From Shewanella sp. TC10 (GTDB taxonomy: Bacteria > Pseudomonadota > Gammaproteobacteria > Enterobacterales > Shewanellaceae), in NCBI RefSeq assembly GCF_009663145.1, contig NZ_VKHR01000003.1, forward strand, positions 4 to 64,003: a stretch of DNA of 64,000 nucleotides. Direction: 5' to 3'. A program made the position numbers and the translations under genes. A model generated the notes under the pieces. The model had not been told where the DNA came from. It made no database searches and saw nothing but the letters and a program-made list of their open reading frames with translations. Positions 17,140 to 24,524 of this stretch are shown piece by piece. The stretch's first letter is position 1, and the number at the start of each line of letters is the position of its first letter.

Positions 17140-20100
17140 ATGCCAAGCTTGATAAGAATAGTGTTAATTAATACTCACCTTCCTGGTGTAGTAGAACTTC
17201 AATTAGATGGACACACTAATATTTGTGGTACCAATGCATCGGGCAAGACGACTTTGCAGCGTCTGGTTCCTGTGTTTTATGGCGAATATCCAAGCAGAGT
17301 TGTCCCCTCAACTCGTGACAGCTTTGAGCGTTGGTATTTACCTCATGACTCAAGCTATATCATTTATGAGTACCAAAAGAGCGACGGTAATTTATATCAA
17401 GCAGTAATGGCATCAGCCGGTGACGGGAAGGGGGTTAACTATCGTTTTATTGCGAAAGGTTTTGAGCTTGATGACTACGTAAAAACTCGCAACGGCGATA
17501 CGATTATCTGTCATACCATGGCAGAGCTTGGCCGTGAGATGAAACGTGCGCAAGTTACTCATACCAACTTACTCAATACCCGTGAATATCGTGCGATTAT
17601 TCAGCACGACCGCAGCCTATTAACTACTGGTGGTAACAAAGGCGAGTTACGCACCTATGCTCATCACTTCTCGCTTTGTGACAGCGAATATTCTTTGCGT
17701 CACATTGAAAAGCTCGCTAAAGCGGTGCATTCAAAAGAAGGCAAAATGGAAACCGTTAAGTCGATGGTTGCCGCTATTTTAGAAGAAGATGGTGTTAATC
17801 CACCTACTTCACGCCTAAACCCGCAGCGTGTAGAAAGCTGGATCCGTGAAAGTCAGCTAGTCCAAGGTTTTGAGCAAATACGTCCAGAGTTTGAAAAGCT
17901 AGAACAAGAGTTTAATCAACTACTCAGCGCAGAATTGAGACTCGGCAGTTTGGCTAAAGGTTATCGGGCAGACGAAACCATTGAGGCTGAGCGACAAGAA
18001 CTCAGTCAAAATGAATCAAAAGATGCCAGCTTACAGCTAAGATTATTAGATGAAGAATGGAAAGAAGCGCGTGATGAAATCAGCCAGGAGTTATCGTTTG
18101 CTCAAGGTGATACGCGTAAATACGAAGCCGAATTAGACTCGATTGAAGATCAATATGAAGGCTTTTTAAATTCAAATATCGAACAGGCTAAAGCTGACTT
18201 AGATAGCTTAGATAATTGGCGCAGTGATTTAGAAAATTTAACCGAACGTCATAAGCTTCAAACCGAAAAACACCAAGATATTGAAGCGGCCTATAGTACT
18301 CGTCGTAGTAAAATTGCAGAGCAACTGCATCGCGAACTTGAGTCTTTGCATGAAGAGCAAGATGAAGCACGTGAAAACCGTGATAGCCAGCGCGAAGCCT
18401 CTTCTGACGATTTAGCCAAGTTAGAAAATCTATGGCGAGAGAAAACTGACGCAGGAAAAGCGACATTTGCAGAGCAAGAATATCAACTTAAATTGACCCG
18501 CGGTGAGCTGAGTCATCAAATCGAAGGTGTGACATACACCGAAGAAGAAAAGATGACCCTTGCGGTGTTTGATGAGCGCATTAGCCGCGCCGACGAAGAG
18601 CAAGAAATCTGTAATCAAAAAGTCGATCGATTGTCAGCTGATGAGCGCAAACTTCGTGCAAAACGCGATCAAGTCAGCGAAGCATTACGTATTGCCAGTG
18701 TACGTGTGAATGAACGTCTTACTGATGTCGATGATGTTAAAGGCGTTCTGTTTCCTCAGTCACATACCTTACTTGAGTTTTTACGTAAAGAATCTCCTGG
18801 TTGGGAGCAAAGCTTTGGTAAAGTTATTGCGCCAGAGTTACTGCATCGCACAGATTTACATCCAAGTGTTACTGGTAAAAGTGAAGATGCGCTATTTGGA
18901 ATCGGTTTAGATCTTAAAGCGATCGAGGTGCCTGATTATGCTTCATCAGAGCAGGATTTACGCTTAAGGCTTAATAAAGCGGAAGAAGCCTTAGCACAAG
19001 CAGAAGAGCTAAAAGGCGAAAATGAAGATCAACTCGTCGCGATTAATGATGAGCTTGATAACCTCAACAAAGAGCTCACCTTTGCCCGCACCGCTTATAA
19101 AAACAGTCGCGAAGATGTCAGACGCTTATTCGATGAAAAACGCAGTACTCAAGCTCAAATTAACCAAGCGCTAGCTGATAGAAAAGCCCATGCAAGCAAG
19201 CGCCTTATTCAATTAGATAACGAGCTTAAGCAGCAACATAACCATCATTTAGAGTGGTTATCGGAGCAAAAAGAGCAAGCCCTTGAAGCGCGAATGGAAA
19301 AAAATGCCTACTGGCAAGATGTGGTAGGGGCGTTAGATAATCAATTAGGGCAAATAAAAGCCAACATTGACACTCGTCGTAGTAATGCCAAGCAAGAGCA
19401 AAAAGCGTGTGATACTTGGTATAAAAACGAGCTTAAATCTCGCGGTGTTGATGAGGCTGCTATTGTAGCGCTGAAAGGTAAAATTCGTGAATTAGAAACC
19501 CAAATCAGTAATGCTGAAAAACGTCGTAGTGATGTATTGCGTTATGACCATTGGTACCAAAATGCTTGGCTTATCACTAAGCCTAAGTTGCAAACTGATT
19601 TATCGAAAGTGAAGCAAGCCGCACTTGAGCTTGAACAGCAACTTGCCAATAAAACGGCTGATGTTAAGCAGCGTAAACAGCAGCTTGAAACCCTTAAAAA
19701 AGCATCTGATGCGGCGCAAGTCGACGCATCAGAAAACCTCACTAAACTGCGCGCTGTAATGCGTAAACTTGCCGAGTTAAAGTTAGCTCCAAATAAAGAT
19801 GAAGCTGATGGCAGTATTGGTGAGCGTTTAAGACAAGGTGAAGAATTACTGCTTCAGCGTGATTATTTACTGGGTTCAGTCAAACAATATGTCGAACATT
19901 TTGATTCGGTTATAGCCAGTAAATCTGGTTCGAGTTTAGCTGAGTTTTGGGAGCGTGCTCGTGATGAGTCAAGTTTTACTAATGACAAAGGCATTCGCTT
20001 GCTCGACTACCGCAAACTGGTGCCACAACTTGAGCAACTGCTGAATGTGATGGTGCCGCAATCCTTAATGGCTATCCGAGAGCAAGGGCGTATCTTTGGT

Positions 20101-20814
20101 ATCGACTTAACTGCTTATTATGATGTCCTTGCCGATATTGATCGTCGTATTGCATCTCAAAGTGCTCGCATTACGCGTGAGGTGGGAGAGGAGCTGTTCC
20201 TTGATGGTGTGTCTGAGTCTGCGGTTAAGATCCGATCGCGAATTAGTGAGTTAGAGTTCTGGCCTGAACTAGAAGTATTTGTAAAAGCCTTCAAGCAATG
20301 GAAAGCTGATGGCTTTAGCCAACTGCCGGATGAGCATTACACATCGAGTATGCGCCGTGCCCTTGATATTATTGGTCGCTCGGCCTTATCTGGCGGTATT
20401 GCTAAGTTGCTTGAAATTGAACTGCGCCTAAAAGAAGGTAACAGCGACTTAATCATTCGCACCGACAGACAGCTAAATGAATCTTCAAGCCATGGTATGG
20501 CTTACTTAATTTTGTGTAAGTTCTTATTGGCCTTTACGCGTTTATTACGTGGTAAAGCGGATGTCACTATTCATTGGCCGATTGATGAATTAGGCACCTT
20601 GCATCATACCAATGTGAAAAAGATCTTTGATGCCTGTGTGAACAACAACATTAGTGTATTAGGTGCTTTTCCGAATCCAGAATCCGAAGTACTTAATCTG
20701 TTTGCTAACCGCTACATCATTAATAAACAAACCCGCAAGCTGCAAGTGGTAAAACCTAAAAGTAACCCGCTGGCTGAACGTTTAAGCCAACGAGCTAACA
20801 AGGAGGCTATCTAA
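17140..20814 (+). CDS. SMC/MukB-like coiled-coil ATPase (DUF3584-like)
   Basis: 1224 residues with SMC architecture. Walker A GTNASGKT is at 30-37. Long coiled coils run ~270-520 and ~610-920, with a globular hinge-like insert between them (~530-610, FPQSHTLLEFLRKESPGW). An ABC-signature-like SSSHGMAYLI lies at ~1115 and a Walker B-like TIHWPIDE at ~1143-1150. The head layout (N-terminal P-loop, C-terminal signature and Walker B) is that of condensin ATPases, but the sequence differs from MukB and from the MksB/JetC I know. Length and P-loop placement recall Pfam DUF3584, from memory. First gene of a three-gene operon: the stop overlaps the next start (TAATG). Expected role is DNA loop extrusion or plasmid/phage surveillance; unproven. 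Confidence 0.85.
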   Translation: MPSLIRIVLINTHLPGVVELQLDGHTNICGTNASGKTTLQRLVPVFYGEYPSRVVPSTRDSFERWYLPHDSSYIIYEYQKSDGNLYQAVMASAGDGKGVNYRFIAKGFELDDYVKTRNGDTIICHTMAELGREMKRAQVTHTNLLNTREYRAIIQHDRSLLTTGGNKGELRTYAHHFSLCDSEYSLRHIEKLAKAVHSKEGKMETVKSMVAAILEEDGVNPPTSRLNPQRVESWIRESQLVQGFEQIRPEFEKLEQEFNQLLSAELRLGSLAKGYRADETIEAERQELSQNESKDASLQLRLLDEEWKEARDEISQELSFAQGDTRKYEAELDSIEDQYEGFLNSNIEQAKADLDSLDNWRSDLENLTERHKLQTEKHQDIEAAYSTRRSKIAEQLHRELESLHEEQDEARENRDSQREASSDDLAKLENLWREKTDAGKATFAEQEYQLKLTRGELSHQIEGVTYTEEEKMTLAVFDERISRADEEQEICNQKVDRLSADERKLRAKRDQVSEALRIASVRVNERLTDVDDVKGVLFPQSHTLLEFLRKESPGWEQSFGKVIAPELLHRTDLHPSVTGKSEDALFGIGLDLKAIEVPDYASSEQDLRLRLNKAEEALAQAEELKGENEDQLVAINDELDNLNKELTFARTAYKNSREDVRRLFDEKRSTQAQINQALADRKAHASKRLIQLDNELKQQHNHHLEWLSEQKEQALEARMEKNAYWQDVVGALDNQLGQIKANIDTRRSNAKQEQKACDTWYKNELKSRGVDEAAIVALKGKIRELETQISNAEKRRSDVLRYDHWYQNAWLITKPKLQTDLSKVKQAALELEQQLANKTADVKQRKQQLETLKKASDAAQVDASENLTKLRAVMRKLAELKLAPNKDEADGSIGERLRQGEELLLQRDYLLGSVKQYVEHFDSVIASKSGSSLAEFWERARDESSFTNDKGIRLLDYRKLVPQLEQLLNVMVPQSLMAIREQGRIFGIDLTAYYDVLADIDRRIASQSARITREVGEELFLDGVSESAVKIRSRISELEFWPELEVFVKAFKQWKADGFSQLPDEHYTSSMRRALDIIGRSALSGGIAKLLEIELRLKEGNSDLIIRTDRQLNESSSHGMAYLILCKFLLAFTRLLRGKADVTIHWPIDELGTLHHTNVKKIFDACVNNNISVLGAFPNPESEVLNLFANRYIINKQTRKLQVVKPKSNPLAERLSQRANKEAI

Positions 20815-21521
20815 TGTCTGAGTCAATGCAAACCACTTTTTCCTCTAAAAACCCAGTGTCTTCACAAAGCACAATGTCTTCTGAAACGGCATTAGTCGGA
20901 ACTGGCATGCTGATAGAGCAGTTACTTCGTGGTGAGTTTATTTGCCGCACGACCAATGAAGATGGTTGGCGAGCCCTTAAAAATAGCACTACTTTTGACA
21001 AGGTTGAGCAATACCTTAATCAGATTAATCGTACGATTTCTTCTGCAGCCGAAGGGGATGTGTTCTTTTGTGGTTATCAGCAATTAGGCGAACAAGAGAA
21101 AAAGGTTATTTCGAGTCAGTTTAAAGATATCTGTTCAGCACTGATCCCTTTAGTTGAATGGTTGGTGCTAGTACAAGAAAGTAGTGGCCAAGATGCCCCT
21201 TTAAGTGAAGGCGCCCCAATACGACTTACTGAGCTGCAAGCAAGAATTGAAGATACCCCAGCTTTTATGGAGCAATTAGCTAAGTTAAGCCAATATCGAT
21301 TATTCGGCTCAACCAGCAGTAACGTGGATAACCAAATAAAGCTGGTATTTAAACGTTTAGTAGAGCTCGGCTATCTTGTTAAACCTAATAGCGAAAAACA
21401 GATTTATATCGCCACAGGCAAACTGGATTATTTGTATGAAGTGATTCGTTTCATTGATGAAACAGAAGGTTTAAGCCTTGAGGCGCAAGCTGAAACAGCC
21501 ACGCAACGGGATTTAGTATGA
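20814..21521 (+). CDS. MukE/MksE-like (Kite) partner of the SMC-like ATPase, putative
   Basis: 235 residues, mostly helical. It starts one base inside the stop of the ATPase gene (TAATG) and its own stop overlaps the next start by 4 bp (ATGA), so the three products are probably made in fixed ratio. An N-terminal flexible Ser/Thr-rich stretch (1-25) precedes GTGMLIEQLLRGEFICRTTN, and the C-terminal half holds a winged-helix-like pattern (NQIKLVFKRLVELGYLVKPN then SEKQIYIATGKLDYLYEVI). Size, two-domain layout and gene context match Kite proteins such as MukE and MksE; direct sequence similarity is weak, so the family is inferred. Confidence 0.7.
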   Translation: MSESMQTTFSSKNPVSSQSTMSSETALVGTGMLIEQLLRGEFICRTTNEDGWRALKNSTTFDKVEQYLNQINRTISSAAEGDVFFCGYQQLGEQEKKVISSQFKDICSALIPLVEWLVLVQESSGQDAPLSEGAPIRLTELQARIEDTPAFMEQLAKLSQYRLFGSTSSNVDNQIKLVFKRLVELGYLVKPNSEKQIYIATGKLDYLYEVIRFIDETEGLSLEAQAETATQRDLV

Positions 21522-22738
21522 GTAATAATTTACATCAAGCCGGGGTTAAGCTGCTTAAACAGCTCAGTCGTCATGCTGATGTGGTTATGGATGCCTATTT
21601 AGCGGGCTCTGTCAGTGAATCCACCCACGATGTAGCGGTGATTGAAAAGCTGAAAAAGAGTGGCATTTTATGGCGACCGGAACCGGATGAAGAGTTACGA
21701 CTAAAGCGTTCAGTGCGAGCATTGCTTGAAGAAGCATTAAGTGATGAGCGTAACCGACAGATTGATGCCAATGTGGGCTCTGCATTTGGAACGATTAAGA
21801 CCTTAGCAGATCACTACAAAGAGGCACGTCATAATATAGATTATGGCGCAGCTGAGGCGTATTTGGCTGATTTGAGTGAACATGTTTATAGCTTTACAGA
21901 TAGCCTACGCTATTCCATCAGGGTGTTATGGGGCCGAATCAATAATGAGTTTGGTTATGTCGGAAGCATTAATGCCAAAATTCGTGAAAACGAACTGGCT
22001 CAAAGTCAGGTTAGTGAATTACTCAATGGCTTGGAGATGTTTCAGTTTAGCGAACTGAGTGAAATAGCCGGTGATATTCGTGAATTAAGACGTTTGCTAG
22101 TCACCAACTTACAAGAGACCTTAAGCCAATGCACGTTAGAGCTTAGCGCGGTGCAAGGTCGATTATTAGAACTTATTGGTCGCTTTAGGCAAATCCAAGG
22201 ACGAACTCGATTATTAAAAGGATTTTTACTGCACACTGATTTACACCCTGATTATCAACCTGAAAATCATGTCGCTCATAAGCATGTACCGAGGTTGTTT
22301 AATTGTGCTGAAGCGATTATTAAACCTGCTAGTGTCGATGTTAATAACGCAAGCCATGAAATTGTCTTGCTTGAAGCTGTCTCTAAAATCAAAGCGATTA
22401 GCCGCGATCTGCTTCCAAGCAAAGTCCGTGAGCATAATGTCGAAACCACAATGACAGAAGTTGAGGATTTTGATATTCCTGATAATCCACTGAAATTAGC
22501 TGTTGATGAGTATTTCTGTGAAGTGATCGACTCAGGGCTGAGACAGTCAGCACTGGAATACCTCAAAGCGAATAAATTAGAGTGGGAAGCGGAAAACTGG
22601 CTGTATCAAGTTATTGGTGGCTATGAAGGCTTGCCCGATGAGCATAAAGCGTATTTTGAGCTTGAACCCATAGGTGAACCTGATCCTGTTTATAATGGTA
22701 ACTTTATGATCCACGATGTCGAGTTGTGGTTGGCATAA
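21518..22738 (+). CDS. MukF/MksF-like kleisin partner of the SMC-like ATPase, putative
   Basis: 406 residues. An N-terminal winged-helix-like block (VAVIEKLKKSGILWRPEPDE, then RSVRALLEEALSDERN) leads into a long helical middle (~90-300, RLLVTNLQETLSQCTLEL) and a compact C-terminal domain (~330-406) ending in NFMIHDVELWLA. This N-WHD, helical, C-terminal-domain order and the size fit the MukF/MksF kleisin class. Last gene of the operon, overlapping the previous one by 4 bp; a strong terminator follows. No Toprim nuclease (JetD of Wadjet) is found downstream. Confidence 0.65.
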   Translation: MSNNLHQAGVKLLKQLSRHADVVMDAYLAGSVSESTHDVAVIEKLKKSGILWRPEPDEELRLKRSVRALLEEALSDERNRQIDANVGSAFGTIKTLADHYKEARHNIDYGAAEAYLADLSEHVYSFTDSLRYSIRVLWGRINNEFGYVGSINAKIRENELAQSQVSELLNGLEMFQFSELSEIAGDIRELRRLLVTNLQETLSQCTLELSAVQGRLLELIGRFRQIQGRTRLLKGFLLHTDLHPDYQPENHVAHKHVPRLFNCAEAIIKPASVDVNNASHEIVLLEAVSKIKAISRDLLPSKVREHNVETTMTEVEDFDIPDNPLKLAVDEYFCEVIDSGLRQSALEYLKANKLEWEAENWLYQVIGGYEGLPDEHKAYFELEPIGEPDPVYNGNFMIHDVELWLA

Positions 22739-22761
22739 CCCGAGCTAATCATTTATTTGAG

Positions 22762-22792
22762 AAAGCAGTTAAGGCAACTTAACTGCTTTTTT
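22762..22792 (+). terminator. Intrinsic terminator of the SMC-like operon
   Basis: Perfect 12-bp stem aaagcagttaag (22762-22773) and cttaactgcttt (22778-22789) capped by a gcaa tetraloop and followed by Ts. Confidence 0.92.
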
Positions 22793-23267
22793 ACTGGCTA
22801 GAATTTAGTCAGCCGAATTGATTGTGATGATTTAACAGTAGCGACTCAAATGGTTTTATATTGATACATTTATCGATCTTGCTGATAACATTGTGATTGA
22901 TTTCATTTAGTAACAAATGTTATTGCTTACGAGTGTTATGGCATCAAGGCAAAACATATTGCATTAAGCCAGTGTATCTAACTTAATTTTGTAATTTAAC
23001 TAACCGATTTTGCTGTTATGGAGTTGTGTTTTGGTTTTGAAAACTGGCATAACAGCCAATTTGATTAAATTTCATGGTTTAATTGTTTTAAAACAGTCAA
23101 TTATACCTCACTGTAAATATCTGCGTTCAATCCCTTTTACAACTTATTGATCTCTAACATTGAAATATGTTGCATCTTGTTTCAGTATCCTTGTCGTTAA
23201 AAATAATTAAAACAAATTTTATCGTCGTTTTTAGGTGTTTTCTTTCTGAAGTCGGCTTGAACTAGGA
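22793..23267 (+). other. Intergenic region and leader of the symporter gene
   Basis: About 475 bp without a supported gene. A 9-bp inverted repeat gctgttatg (23012-23020) and cataacagc (23048-23056) lies ~210 bp before the symporter. A TGTGATTGATTTCATT sequence near 22890 loosely resembles a CRP site (left half perfect, right half poor). No further feature is supported. Confidence 0.4.
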
Positions 23268-24524
23268 ATGCAGAAAAATATGACCAAATCATTATCGACT
23301 CGAATTTTTATCGGGTTATTCTTAGGGGTACTACTGGGTAGTATCGTTCAATTTGCGCTAAATGATGTGGCGTTCTTTTCGGGGACATTAGTCGAAGTTG
23401 CTTCTGGCATAGGTAAAATGTTCGTCAACATGATCATGATGCTAGTGGTGCCATTAGTGTTTGTCAGTATCGTTTGTGGCGTGTGTGAACTTCAAGACTT
23501 AAAAAGCTTTGGTCGCTTAGGCGGTAAAACATTTAGCTTTTACATTATTAATACCCTAGTGGCGATTACGGCAGCTTTTGCGGTAGCGATGTTAATCGAG
23601 CCTGGTAAAGGCGTTGATATGTCTAGTGCTGGTGGCGTAGATATTACCGCCACTGAACTGCCAAATTTGATGACCTTGATTGTCAATATCGTACCAAATA
23701 ATCCATTCTCGGCATTTACGTCAGGCAATATGCTGCAAGTCATTTTCATGGCGCTATTACTTGGTGGCGTGATTAAGTCATTAGGTGAAGTTGCTAAAGG
23801 CGCAGTGAAGGGCTTTCAAACCGCTAACGTCATTATGATGCGTTTGATTTCAGTGGTGATGAACCTTGCCCCTATCGGTGTGTTTGCATTGATGTTCAAG
23901 CTTGGTGCGACGCTAGAGCCTGAAATCTTCTTCAGTGTGGTGCAATATTTACTGCTAATTCTTGGGTTGTTATTACTGTGGATTTTTGTGGTATACCCAT
24001 ATGCAGTAAGCTTCTTCACACAAGTTAGTGCTAAGCAGTTCCGTGAAAAAACCCGTGAGCAAATCTTGTTCTCGCTATCAACGGCGAGTTCAAATGCCAC
24101 GATTCCAGTCACCATGCGTACCTTGACTGATAAGTTAGGTGTTAACCGTGCAGTTGCTGGTTTTGGTGTGCCACTGGGCGCGACGATGAACATGGGCGGT
24201 GTATCAATTTACATCACTATTGCAATCTTCTTTGTTGCCAATGCTTTTGGTATGCCAATTAGTGGCGATCAAATTCCAGCCTTATTGTTCAGTGTTTTCT
24301 TATTGTCAGTGGGTGCAGGTGGTGTTCCTGGTGGCGGGATGGTTATGATTGGTGTGCTTATTCACCAAATGGGATTACCAGTTGAAGCGTTTGCTATTGT
24401 TGCAGCGTTAGACCGTATCATCGATATGGTGTTGACGTCATGTAATGTCGTAGGTGATACAGCGGTACTAACCATCGTTGACCAAACTGAAAAGCCGCAC
24501 CAAATTGAAGCTGAAAAAGCTTAA
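23268..24524 (+). CDS. Dicarboxylate/amino acid:cation symporter (DAACS/SLC1 family)
   Basis: Inner-membrane Na+ or H+-coupled uptake of acidic amino acids or C4-dicarboxylates. 418 residues with eight membrane helices and two re-entrant hairpins. The serine-rich hairpin SLSTASSNATIPVTM, the unwound helix 7 motif ATMNMGGVSI (NMDGT in most members), the second hairpin GAGGVPGGGMVMI and helix 8 DRIIDMVLTSCNVVGD are all present. The Asp-to-Gly change in NMDGT (here NMGGV) may alter cation binding. AGGA abuts ATG 23268, so ATG 23280 is an alternative start. Confidence 0.93.
   Translation: MQKNMTKSLSTRIFIGLFLGVLLGSIVQFALNDVAFFSGTLVEVASGIGKMFVNMIMMLVVPLVFVSIVCGVCELQDLKSFGRLGGKTFSFYIINTLVAITAAFAVAMLIEPGKGVDMSSAGGVDITATELPNLMTLIVNIVPNNPFSAFTSGNMLQVIFMALLLGGVIKSLGEVAKGAVKGFQTANVIMMRLISVVMNLAPIGVFALMFKLGATLEPEIFFSVVQYLLLILGLLLLWIFVVYPYAVSFFTQVSAKQFREKTREQILFSLSTASSNATIPVTMRTLTDKLGVNRAVAGFGVPLGATMNMGGVSIYITIAIFFVANAFGMPISGDQIPALLFSVFLLSVGAGGVPGGGMVMIGVLIHQMGLPVEAFAIVAALDRIIDMVLTSCNVVGDTAVLTIVDQTEKPHQIEAEKA

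What the first reader, a model, noticed from the sequence alone, without database searches (positions are those of the whole stretch)
17140..22738. Three-gene SMC-like condensin operon with an uncommon gene order
A 1224-residue SMC-architecture ATPase (Walker A 30-37, hinge-like centre ~530-610, signature ~1115, Walker B ~1143-1150) is tied by TAATG and ATGA overlaps to a MukE/MksE-like (Kite) and a MukF/MksF-like (kleisin) protein. The order ATPase, Kite, kleisin is the reverse of MukFEB and of Wadjet JetABCD, and the ATPase does not look like MukB or the MksB/JetC I know. It recalls Pfam DUF3584. No JetD nuclease is next to it, and no chromosome-organisation gene either. It may be an uncharacterised condensin used in chromosome folding, plasmid or phage control, or repair.
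Basis: partly seen in the sequence, partly recalled or inferred. Interest (0 to 1): 0.82.

Follow-up and report, generated by a model that had tools for sequence, protein, structure and literature searches.

The report
Wadjet-like condensin often lacking nuclease
Every Shewanella genome examined carries the motor gene of a protein complex related to a bacterial plasmid-destroying defence system, and about half of them, including this one, lack the system's DNA-cutting enzyme while the motor stays intact, which suggests that a weapon became a chromosome-handling machine.

Summary
The ATPase is a full-length DUF3584 protein (1615 bits); the Kite and kleisin models resemble JetB/MukE and MukF/JetA. 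The genus is Shewanella.

In relatives a Toprim nuclease (Pfam DUF7281, JetD-like) follows the kleisin: in 11 of 11 plasmid and phage copies opened, but in only 62 of 129 Shewanella genomes. The ATPase is in 129 of 129, all three core genes in 73 of 74 loci read. This genome has no such nuclease. The core is under equally strong purifying selection with or without it (median dN/dS 0.013-0.030; nuclease 0.133).

Across 247 genomes of the order DUF3584 and MukB almost exclude each other (3 with both, 35 expected). In one family (17 of 17) DUF3584 is the only SMC complex of the kinds searched.

Best reading: a Wadjet-like complex of order C-B-A-D that has become a core chromosomal condensin, with an optional anti-plasmid nuclease. 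The chromosomal role is inferred, not shown. New variant of a known kind.

The parts
17140..20814 (+). SMC-type ATPase, Pfam DUF3584 (JetC/MukB-like motor subunit), 1224 aa
   Evidence: full-length DUF3584 match; Walker A, signature and Walker B present
20814..21521 (+). Kite subunit (tandem winged-helix, JetB/MukE/MksE-like), 235 aa
   Evidence: MksE Pfam above cut-off; model pLDDT 87.4; 16 of the 17 best Foldseek rows are chains of JetABC or MukE/MukBEF entries
21518..22738 (+). Kleisin subunit (MukF/JetA-like), 406 aa
   Evidence: model pLDDT 82.8, pTM 0.43; Foldseek best hits MukF (E 2e-4) and JetA (E 1e-3); no detectable sequence match
22758..22793 (+). Hairpin running into T residues, probable intrinsic terminator of the three-gene operon, at the place where relatives carry the nuclease gene
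   Evidence: (-20.2 kcal/mol, z -6.1), sequence
22739..23267 (.). Gap where the JetD-like (DUF7281) gene sits in 31 of 74 loci (73 named relatives and the window); no recognisable remnant
   Evidence: tblastn of 28 relatives' proteins; only a 25-residue match at 22757-22831 with E 0.38
23268..24524 (+). Transporter gene (symporter-like by eye, no family search made): downstream neighbour that marks the locus within the genus
   Evidence: found downstream of the operon in 65 of 74 loci; also downstream of all 7 divergent operons of the genus; not seen at loci outside the family

Best explanation
A Wadjet-like SMC complex of order ATPase-Kite-kleisin(-nuclease). SHOWN by sequence or models: the three subunits have the parts of a Kite-type SMC motor; relatives add a Toprim nuclease as fourth gene; in Shewanella the nuclease is patchy while the core is general and constrained. 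INFERRED: an ATPase dimer bridged by kleisin and Kite entraps DNA and extrudes loops by ATP-driven head engagement. In copies with the nuclease, complete extrusion of a small circle would trigger cutting, as in Wadjet. In this genome, with no such nuclease, the complex would act on the chromosome as an accessory condensin beside Smc-ScpAB (loop formation and segregation), as MksBEF does in Pseudomonas aeruginosa.
For: ATPase in 129 of 129 genomes of the genus (in one, G472, it is split over two frames, in another, G465, over two contigs); all three core genes in 73 of 74 loci read, the other ending at a contig edge; same downstream neighbour in 65 of 74. Defence genes are expected to be sporadic. 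DUF7281 in 62 of 129; 65 of the 67 others have no JetD_C match either. Nuclease presence changes at least 7 times on the core tree, 7 forced by well-supported branches. Median dN/dS without nuclease: ATPase 0.021, Kite 0.013, kleisin 0.021, neighbouring transporter 0.024; with nuclease: 0.024, 0.018, 0.030, 0.028, and nuclease 0.133 (25 pairs each, 24 for one transporter set). MukB and DUF3584 together in 3 of 247 genomes, expected 35. In family f191 (17 of 17) no convincing MukB, and no ScpA, Smc or JetA-I. Mobile copies opened: nuclease gene in 11 of 11. Seven Shewanella carry a divergent operon at the same place, one beside a remnant of the resident kleisin: the operon was exchanged, not simply lost.
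Against: No experiment. 16 of 17 f191 genomes keep the nuclease, so sole-SMC status does not go with nuclease loss there. The two f201 genomes that have MukB and a full-length DUF3584 gene both carry the nuclease, as a pure defence system would. MukB/DUF3584 exclusion follows families and may reflect few ancestral events. MatP, the partner of MukBEF, is absent from all 88 DUF3584 genomes without MukB, so it is not a MukBEF copy. Exchange by divergent operons at one locus is also typical of conflict genes. Outside the genus no neighbour but the nuclease is widely shared. The kleisin fold rests on a model with pTM 0.43.
Confidence: 0.57

Rival explanations
1. It is only a defence system. Without its own nuclease it restricts plasmids by looping, sequestering or silencing them, or it borrows an unrelated nuclease in trans.
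For: All 11 plasmid or phage copies opened carry the nuclease gene. DUF7281 hardly occurs without DUF3584 (2 of 54 genomes in the order sample). In-place exchange of divergent operons, all seven with the nuclease. The two f201 genomes with MukB plus DUF3584 have the nuclease.
Against: 129 of 129 occurrence of the ATPase, a conserved locus in the genus and dN/dS like the neighbouring transporter are unusual for defence genes. JetD_C was found in only 2 of the 67 nuclease-less genomes; other nucleases were not searched.
Confidence: 0.26
2. It is primarily a chromosomal condensin, a distant MksBEF/MukBEF replacement; the Toprim protein is a later accessory (for example a decatenase-like partner), not a defence nuclease.
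For: Kite passes the MksE Pfam cut-off; MukB and DUF3584 exclude each other; f191 has no other SMC complex of the kinds searched; Toprim proteins partner SMCs elsewhere (topoisomerase IV and MukB, named in PMC10123090, passages read).
Against: The nuclease tree groups broadly by core type, though 19 of 53 inner branches are open, and every mobile copy opened has the gene, so it looks old; it has the E...DxD pattern of a Toprim nuclease and evolves several times faster than the core.
Confidence: 0.15
3. A DNA-repair complex of the RecN or SbcC kind.
For: SMC-like architecture only.
Against: Kite and kleisin partners are not part of RecN or SbcCD (established knowledge); no SbcC-type Pfam domain matches.
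Confidence: 0.02

Closest known systems
Wadjet JetABCD / MksBEFG (anti-plasmid SMC nuclease)
   Same: SMC ATPase, Kite, kleisin and a Toprim nuclease in one operon in the relatives; Kite model closest to JetB; nuclease has a Toprim E...DxD pattern and a distant JetD match
   Different: Order is C-B-A-D instead of A-B-C-D; PADLOC Jet models do not recognise the Kite or kleisin and only graze the ATPase; the nuclease belongs to another Pfam family (DUF7281); this genome has no nuclease of either family
MksBEF of Pseudomonas aeruginosa (chromosomal condensin beside Smc-ScpAB)
   Same: Works-like candidate: three subunits, MksE-type Kite, no nuclease here, Smc and ScpA present in the same genome
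   Different: Operon order mksFEB(G) as given in PMC10123090 (passages read); DUF3584 ATPase; direct comparison with the P. aeruginosa proteins was not made
MukBEF
   Same: Kleisin model best matches MukF; near exclusion of MukB across the order
   Different: No MukB domain in the ATPase; order reversed; MatP absent
   Same: Its ATPase heads are the closest to DUF3584 heads among the four families compared with it (hhalign E 7.6e-14 and 2.7e-10); DUF3584 itself scores it at 26.7-29.5 bits, and 31.4 summed in G655
   Different: ATPase 960-1042 aa; nuclease-like gene upstream; Kite last

Membership tests
Pfam DUF3584 (PF12128) | profile match above curated cut-off over the full length | tested here: met
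   1614.9 bits, positions 1-1191 of 1191
Wadjet JetABCD | SMC ATPase + Kite + kleisin encoded together | tested here: met
   the kleisin by model only
Wadjet JetABCD | JetD-type Toprim nuclease in the operon (this window) | tested here: not met
   no DUF7281 or JetD_C match in the draft genome G000, no significant remnant in 22739-23267
Wadjet JetABCD | JetD-type Toprim nuclease in the operon (relatives) | tested here: met
   62 of 129 genomes of the genus (three of them not beside the main core), 11 of 11 mobile copies opened; the link of DUF7281 to JetD itself is distant (JetD_C below cut-off in 3 of 10, PADLOC JetD weak in 7 of 10)
Wadjet JetABCD | recognised by PADLOC Jet models | tested here: not met
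   ATPase best E 4.3e-5 over 42 residues; Kite and kleisin none
Wadjet JetABCD | gene order JetA-B-C-D | tested here: not met
   order C-B-A(-D)
Wadjet JetABCD | restriction of small circular plasmids | not testable with these tools
   needs transformation assays
MksBEF | MksE-type Kite | tested here: met
   PF21980 29.7 bits against 27; the model also hits a JetB (54.2 bits) and another Kite (49.6 bits), so it is broad
MksBEF | order mksF-mksE-mksB | tested here: not met
MksBEF | role in chromosome organisation | not testable with these tools
   needs Hi-C, segregation assays
MukBEF | MukB N-terminal domain PF04310 | tested here: not met
   none in the ATPase or in G000
Smc-ScpAB | Smc and ScpA profile match | tested here: not met
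   Smc equivalog model only 16.7 bits (cut-off 567) in the coiled coil; Smc and ScpA are separate genes elsewhere in G000

The most novel reading that the evidence does not exclude
A separate lineage of SMC complexes (DUF3584 ATPase, Kite, kleisin, optional DUF7281 nuclease) carried by plasmids and at least one phage as an anti-DNA weapon became a fixed chromosomal condensin in all Shewanella, with repeated loss of the nuclease, and in a Psychromonas-like family serves, nuclease included, as the only SMC complex the cell has: one machine for both chromosome folding and plasmid immunity.
Probability: 0.35. Interest if true: 0.85.

Novelty: new variant of a known kind. Interest (0 to 1): 0.66.

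Why it matters
It has been proposed that P. aeruginosa MksBEF, and likely MukBEF, arose from a Wadjet-like defence complex by loss of JetD (PMC10586767, passages read). Within one genus of tractable bacteria this family offers what look like both states: the same core with and without the nuclease, at one chromosomal locus, with the core equally constrained. That makes the question 'can a plasmid-cutting SMC complex be a chromosome condensin?' directly testable by comparing species or removing genes. A family that appears to rely on this complex alone would be a natural test of whether one SMC complex can do both jobs.

Tried and rejected
MukBEF membership: rejected (no PF04310, no MatP). The idea that DUF3584 had taken over MukB's regulator was tested and failed: MatP is in 73 of 247 genomes, all of them with MukB.

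Sequence-only proof of the kleisin: a PDB profile search and hhalign against one JetA and one MukF sequence gave nothing; only the fold model matches. In the VIA list unrelated long-helix proteins (STATs, syntaxins) reach Z 12.2-12.4 with far better rmsd than the best MukF row (Z 13.3, rmsd 26.6), so the fold evidence rests on MukF and JetA entries filling ranks 1-9 of Foldseek (one row below E 0.001), not on Z alone. The Kite profile found no related PDB chain by sequence.

Nuclease decay in G435/L203: rejected as evidence, because its kleisin is also split and the assembly is 90% complete. Nuclease remnant in the window: none significant. Neighbours other than the nuclease: none shared across many families.

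Limits and dropped rows. MukB/DUF3584 exclusion follows family lines, so the Fisher p is not a count of independent events. Four MukB matches over the cut-off at 23.8-25.9 bits (G371, G612, G674, G683) were not counted as MukB; G612 is one of the 17 f191 genomes. In the order search for DUF3584 only 2 candidates per genome were scored, and 14 in the Smc search, so very diverged copies may be missed. DUF3584 counts include two partial genes (G681, G510). Tree and dN/dS left out L203, L215 and L265. dN/dS pairs were 25 drawn from 46 (nuclease) and 42 (no nuclease) pairs with equal-length kleisins under 5% different and ATPase dS 0.1-1.2, which favours low kleisin values; pairs share species. Of 12 plasmid records with at least 80% coverage 10 were opened (not H2, H12), plus the one phage; in 2 of these 11 the simple D-x-D-[PA]-x-G pattern was not found in the nuclease although the profile matches (L272, L278).

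The P. aeruginosa MksBEF proteins were not fetched. Petrushenko 2011, which defined several MksBEF families, is not held, so this family may be among theirs.

Literature searches: DUF7281 0 papers; DUF3584 5 papers, seen as a listing except one passage, which lists a DUF3584 'chromosome segregation ATPase' among Methanoperedens plasmid proteins; Psychromonas+MukB 0; Shewanella+condensin+MukB 6 papers and Shewanella oneidensis+Wadjet 3 papers, listings only, none opened; other listings.
Full report
THE OBSERVATION. A 16-pair hairpin running into T residues at 22758-22793 (-20.2 kcal/mol, z -6.1, 0 of 200 shuffles as good) probably closes the operon; the next gene, a transporter by eye, starts at 23268.

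WHAT THE SUBUNITS ARE. The ATPase is a full-length member of Pfam DUF3584 (1614.9 bits); NCBIfam and PADLOC give only weak matches. In an alignment of 37 relatives the signature (S1117, G1119) and Walker B (D1149, E1150) positions are invariant and Walker A nearly so. The Kite passes the MksE model (29.7 against 27 bits), a broad model that also hits a JetB. Its predicted structure (62 sequences, pLDDT 87.4) finds chains of JetABC or MukE/MukBEF entries in 16 of its 17 best Foldseek rows and at the top of the VIA list (Z 9.6, rmsd 6.5 over 182 residues for the E. coli JetABC chain). The kleisin has no sequence match, but its model (46 sequences, pLDDT 82.8, pTM 0.43) finds MukF first (E 2e-4) and JetA second and third (about 1e-3). 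The fold evidence is moderate for the kleisin and good for the Kite.

A FOURTH GENE IN THE RELATIVES. In 45 of 45 DUF3584 loci fetched for this purpose the order is ATPase, Kite, kleisin. Clustering of the neighbours showed one more shared gene in 28 of the 45 loci, mostly directly after the kleisin but about 5 kb away in one (L102); tblastn found divergent copies directly after the kleisin in four more (L078, L082, L083, L101). It is Pfam DUF7281 (101-173 bits in ten tested), with sub-threshold JetD_C matches in 3 of 10 and weak PADLOC JetD matches in 7 of 10. An alignment of 24 shows invariant E-N, G and D-x-D-x-x-G positions of a Toprim domain. Profile comparison with one JetD sequence gives E 1.5e-4 (probability 52%) over the Toprim part; the best PDB chain is Spo11 at a non-significant 0.035. 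I read it as a JetD-like nuclease. In 24 of the 31 named Shewanella loci that have it, its start overlaps the kleisin stop by 13 bases.

DISTRIBUTION IN THE GENUS. The genus is Shewanella: 72 of 73 named loci in a capped list, the other Parashewanella; the nearest is S. olleyana at 99%. The ATPase is over the cut-off in 129 of 129 genomes, split over two frames in G472 and over two contigs in G465. Only the ATPase was searched in all 129; all three core genes were found in 73 of 74 loci read (73 named and the window), the exception being cut by a contig end, and two of the 73 (L203, L265) have a split or truncated core gene. DUF7281 is in 62 of 129, three of them not beside the main core (G434, G477, G386). 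Of the 67 genomes without it, 65 also lack JetD_C, the exceptions being G467, which has a Wadjet I operon, and G408 (28.6 bits). Our own genome has neither. On a tree of 74 cores (71 of the genus and Parashewanella, 3 outgroups) the nuclease needs at least 7 changes, 7 forced by well-supported branches. The nuclease tree groups broadly by core type, with many weak branches, so old presence with several losses is likelier than repeated gain, although gains such as S. insulae are not excluded.

SELECTION. Pairwise dN/dS (25 pairs in each group) has medians of 0.021 (ATPase), 0.013 (Kite) and 0.021 (kleisin) in nuclease-less species, and 0.024, 0.018 and 0.030 in nuclease-bearing species; the transporter next door has 0.024 and 0.028; the nuclease has 0.133. 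An earlier hand-picked set (10 and 8 pairs) gave the same picture. Motor motifs are present in 72 of 72 and Toprim motifs in 30 of 30 copies checked. The core is therefore maintained as strictly without the nuclease as with it.

EXCHANGE AT THE LOCUS. Seven genomes of the genus carry a divergent operon whose kleisin is about 20% identical to ours and resembles that of family f191 (the nuclease tree agrees). All seven have it beside the same transporter, and all seven genomes have the nuclease. In one (G478, L086) a 102-residue piece of the resident-type kleisin, 62% identical to ours, lies between the new operon and the transporter. The resident operon was replaced in place.

ACROSS THE ORDER. 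In 247 genomes DUF3584 is over the cut-off in 91, MukB in 94 (counting only E below 1e-100) and ScpA in 115. Combinations: DUF3584 with ScpA 64, DUF3584 alone 24, MukB alone 80, MukB with ScpA 11, ScpA alone 39, DUF3584 with MukB 2, all three 1, none 26. Only 3 have both DUF3584 and MukB, 35 expected. Of the 24 with DUF3584 alone, 17 are family f191 and 4 are f185. Smc was searched in these 21, in two of the other three (G520 and G565, both with Smc; G585 was not searched) and in 11 further genomes: no convincing Smc in 17 of 17 f191 and 11 of 11 f185 genomes (best 32 and 52 bits against about 900-1016 for true Smc). JetA-I is absent from 17 of 17 f191 genomes and present in 7 of 11 f185 genomes. 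DUF7281 is in 52 of the 91 DUF3584 genomes: f191 16 of 17, f196 8 of 9, f1 11 of 19, f184 5 of 11, f189 4 of 12, f195 2 of 2, f200 2 of 3, f201 2 of 2, f193 1 of 1, f185 1 of 4, f2 0 of 9, f197 0 of 1, f205 0 of 1; and in 2 genomes without DUF3584. MatP is confined to MukB genomes (73 of 94). These patterns follow families, so few independent events may underlie them.

MOBILE COPIES. In 72,556 plasmid records 40 match the ATPase, 12 over at least 80%; in 50,697 phage records one does, Dolichospermum phage Dfl-JY45, 30.6% identical over the whole protein. Ten of the 12 plasmids and the phage were opened: all 11 hold the four genes in the order ATPase, Kite, kleisin, nuclease (ATPase and kleisin in pieces in one, L276), against a nuclease in 62 of 129 Shewanella (Fisher p 0.0007, not corrected for kinship). 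In two Acinetobacter plasmids the fourth gene is annotated as a DUF2399 protein.

RELATION TO KNOWN ATPASES. Head-only profile comparisons put DUF3584 closest to the 960-1042 aa ATPases of the L138-L140 systems (E 7.6e-14 for the N-terminal and 2.7e-10 for the C-terminal head), whereas JetC-I, MukB and Smc match over 23-29 columns around Walker A, with a weak C-terminal match to MukB (91 columns, E 3e-4, probability 40%). This looks like a distinct branch of Kite-type SMC complexes rather than a JetC-I or MukB.

HOW IT PROBABLY WORKS. From the parts and from established knowledge of MukBEF, Smc5/6 and Wadjet: two ATPases dimerise at the hinge, the kleisin bridges their heads, Kites sit on the kleisin, and ATP cycles move DNA loops. 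With the nuclease, a circle that is fully extruded would be cut. Without it, the motor would shape the chromosome beside Smc-ScpAB. The assembly and both activities are inferred. The strongest support for a chromosomal job is the combination of universality, fixed locus in the genus and constraint without the nuclease; the strongest objections are that nothing was measured, that family f191, where it is the only SMC complex found, keeps the nuclease, and that in-place exchange also suits a conflict gene.

RELATION TO THE LITERATURE. [quoted passage not shown] aeruginosa MksBEF likely arose by loss of JetD. PMC7485682 (passages read) reports that several distantly related MksBEF families exist and that MksBEF and SMC both act in P. 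aeruginosa chromosome segregation. PMC10123090 (passages read) gives the operon order mksFEBG. PMC4255302, PMC10512200 and PMC12287153 were also read in passages. No paper held mentions DUF7281; five mention DUF3584, one of which (PMC9674854, passage read) lists such a protein as a plasmid-encoded chromosome segregation ATPase of Methanoperedens. The 2011 paper that defined MksBEF could not be read, so part of this family may already be inside its MksB families.

CHECK.

Noticed in passing
L138, L139, L140 (G480, G459, G655): A four-gene system: JetD3-like protein (267 aa in L139), 960-1042 aa ATPase, about 460-aa protein of kleisin size, Kite-size protein (182 aa in L139, MksE Pfam 49.6 bits). 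PADLOC and Pfam were run on L139 only and do not name its ATPase; its heads are the closest found to DUF3584.
   Followed up: partly
family f185 genomes G498, G542, G619, G674, G683 (L142-L145): No Smc, ScpA, DUF3584 or convincing MukB, but a Wadjet I-type JetA; JetB and JetC confirmed next to it in L143 (G619) and ORFs of matching size in L142, L144, L145. Wadjet-like complexes may be the only SMC machines there. G521 and G692 have none of those searched.
   Followed up: partly
L271:5974-12329 (PP438435.1): A cyanobacterial phage record carries the complete four-gene operon, all annotated as hypothetical proteins.
   Followed up: yes
L086:4848-5153 (G478): Remnant of the resident-type kleisin beside a divergent replacing operon.
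   Followed up: yes
L085 (G478) and L087 (G386): Second, divergent DUF3584 operons elsewhere in two Shewanella genomes, both with the nuclease.
   Followed up: partly
L276 (V. campbellii plasmid pLA16-1); H12 (E. hormaechei plasmid): ATPase and kleisin annotated in two pieces on the first; on the second the ATPase match is in two pieces with an IS256-like transposase annotated under it.
   Followed up: no
family f205, genus g303 (11 genomes, and G681): MukB and ScpA occur together in the same genomes, an uncommon combination in this sample.
   Followed up: no
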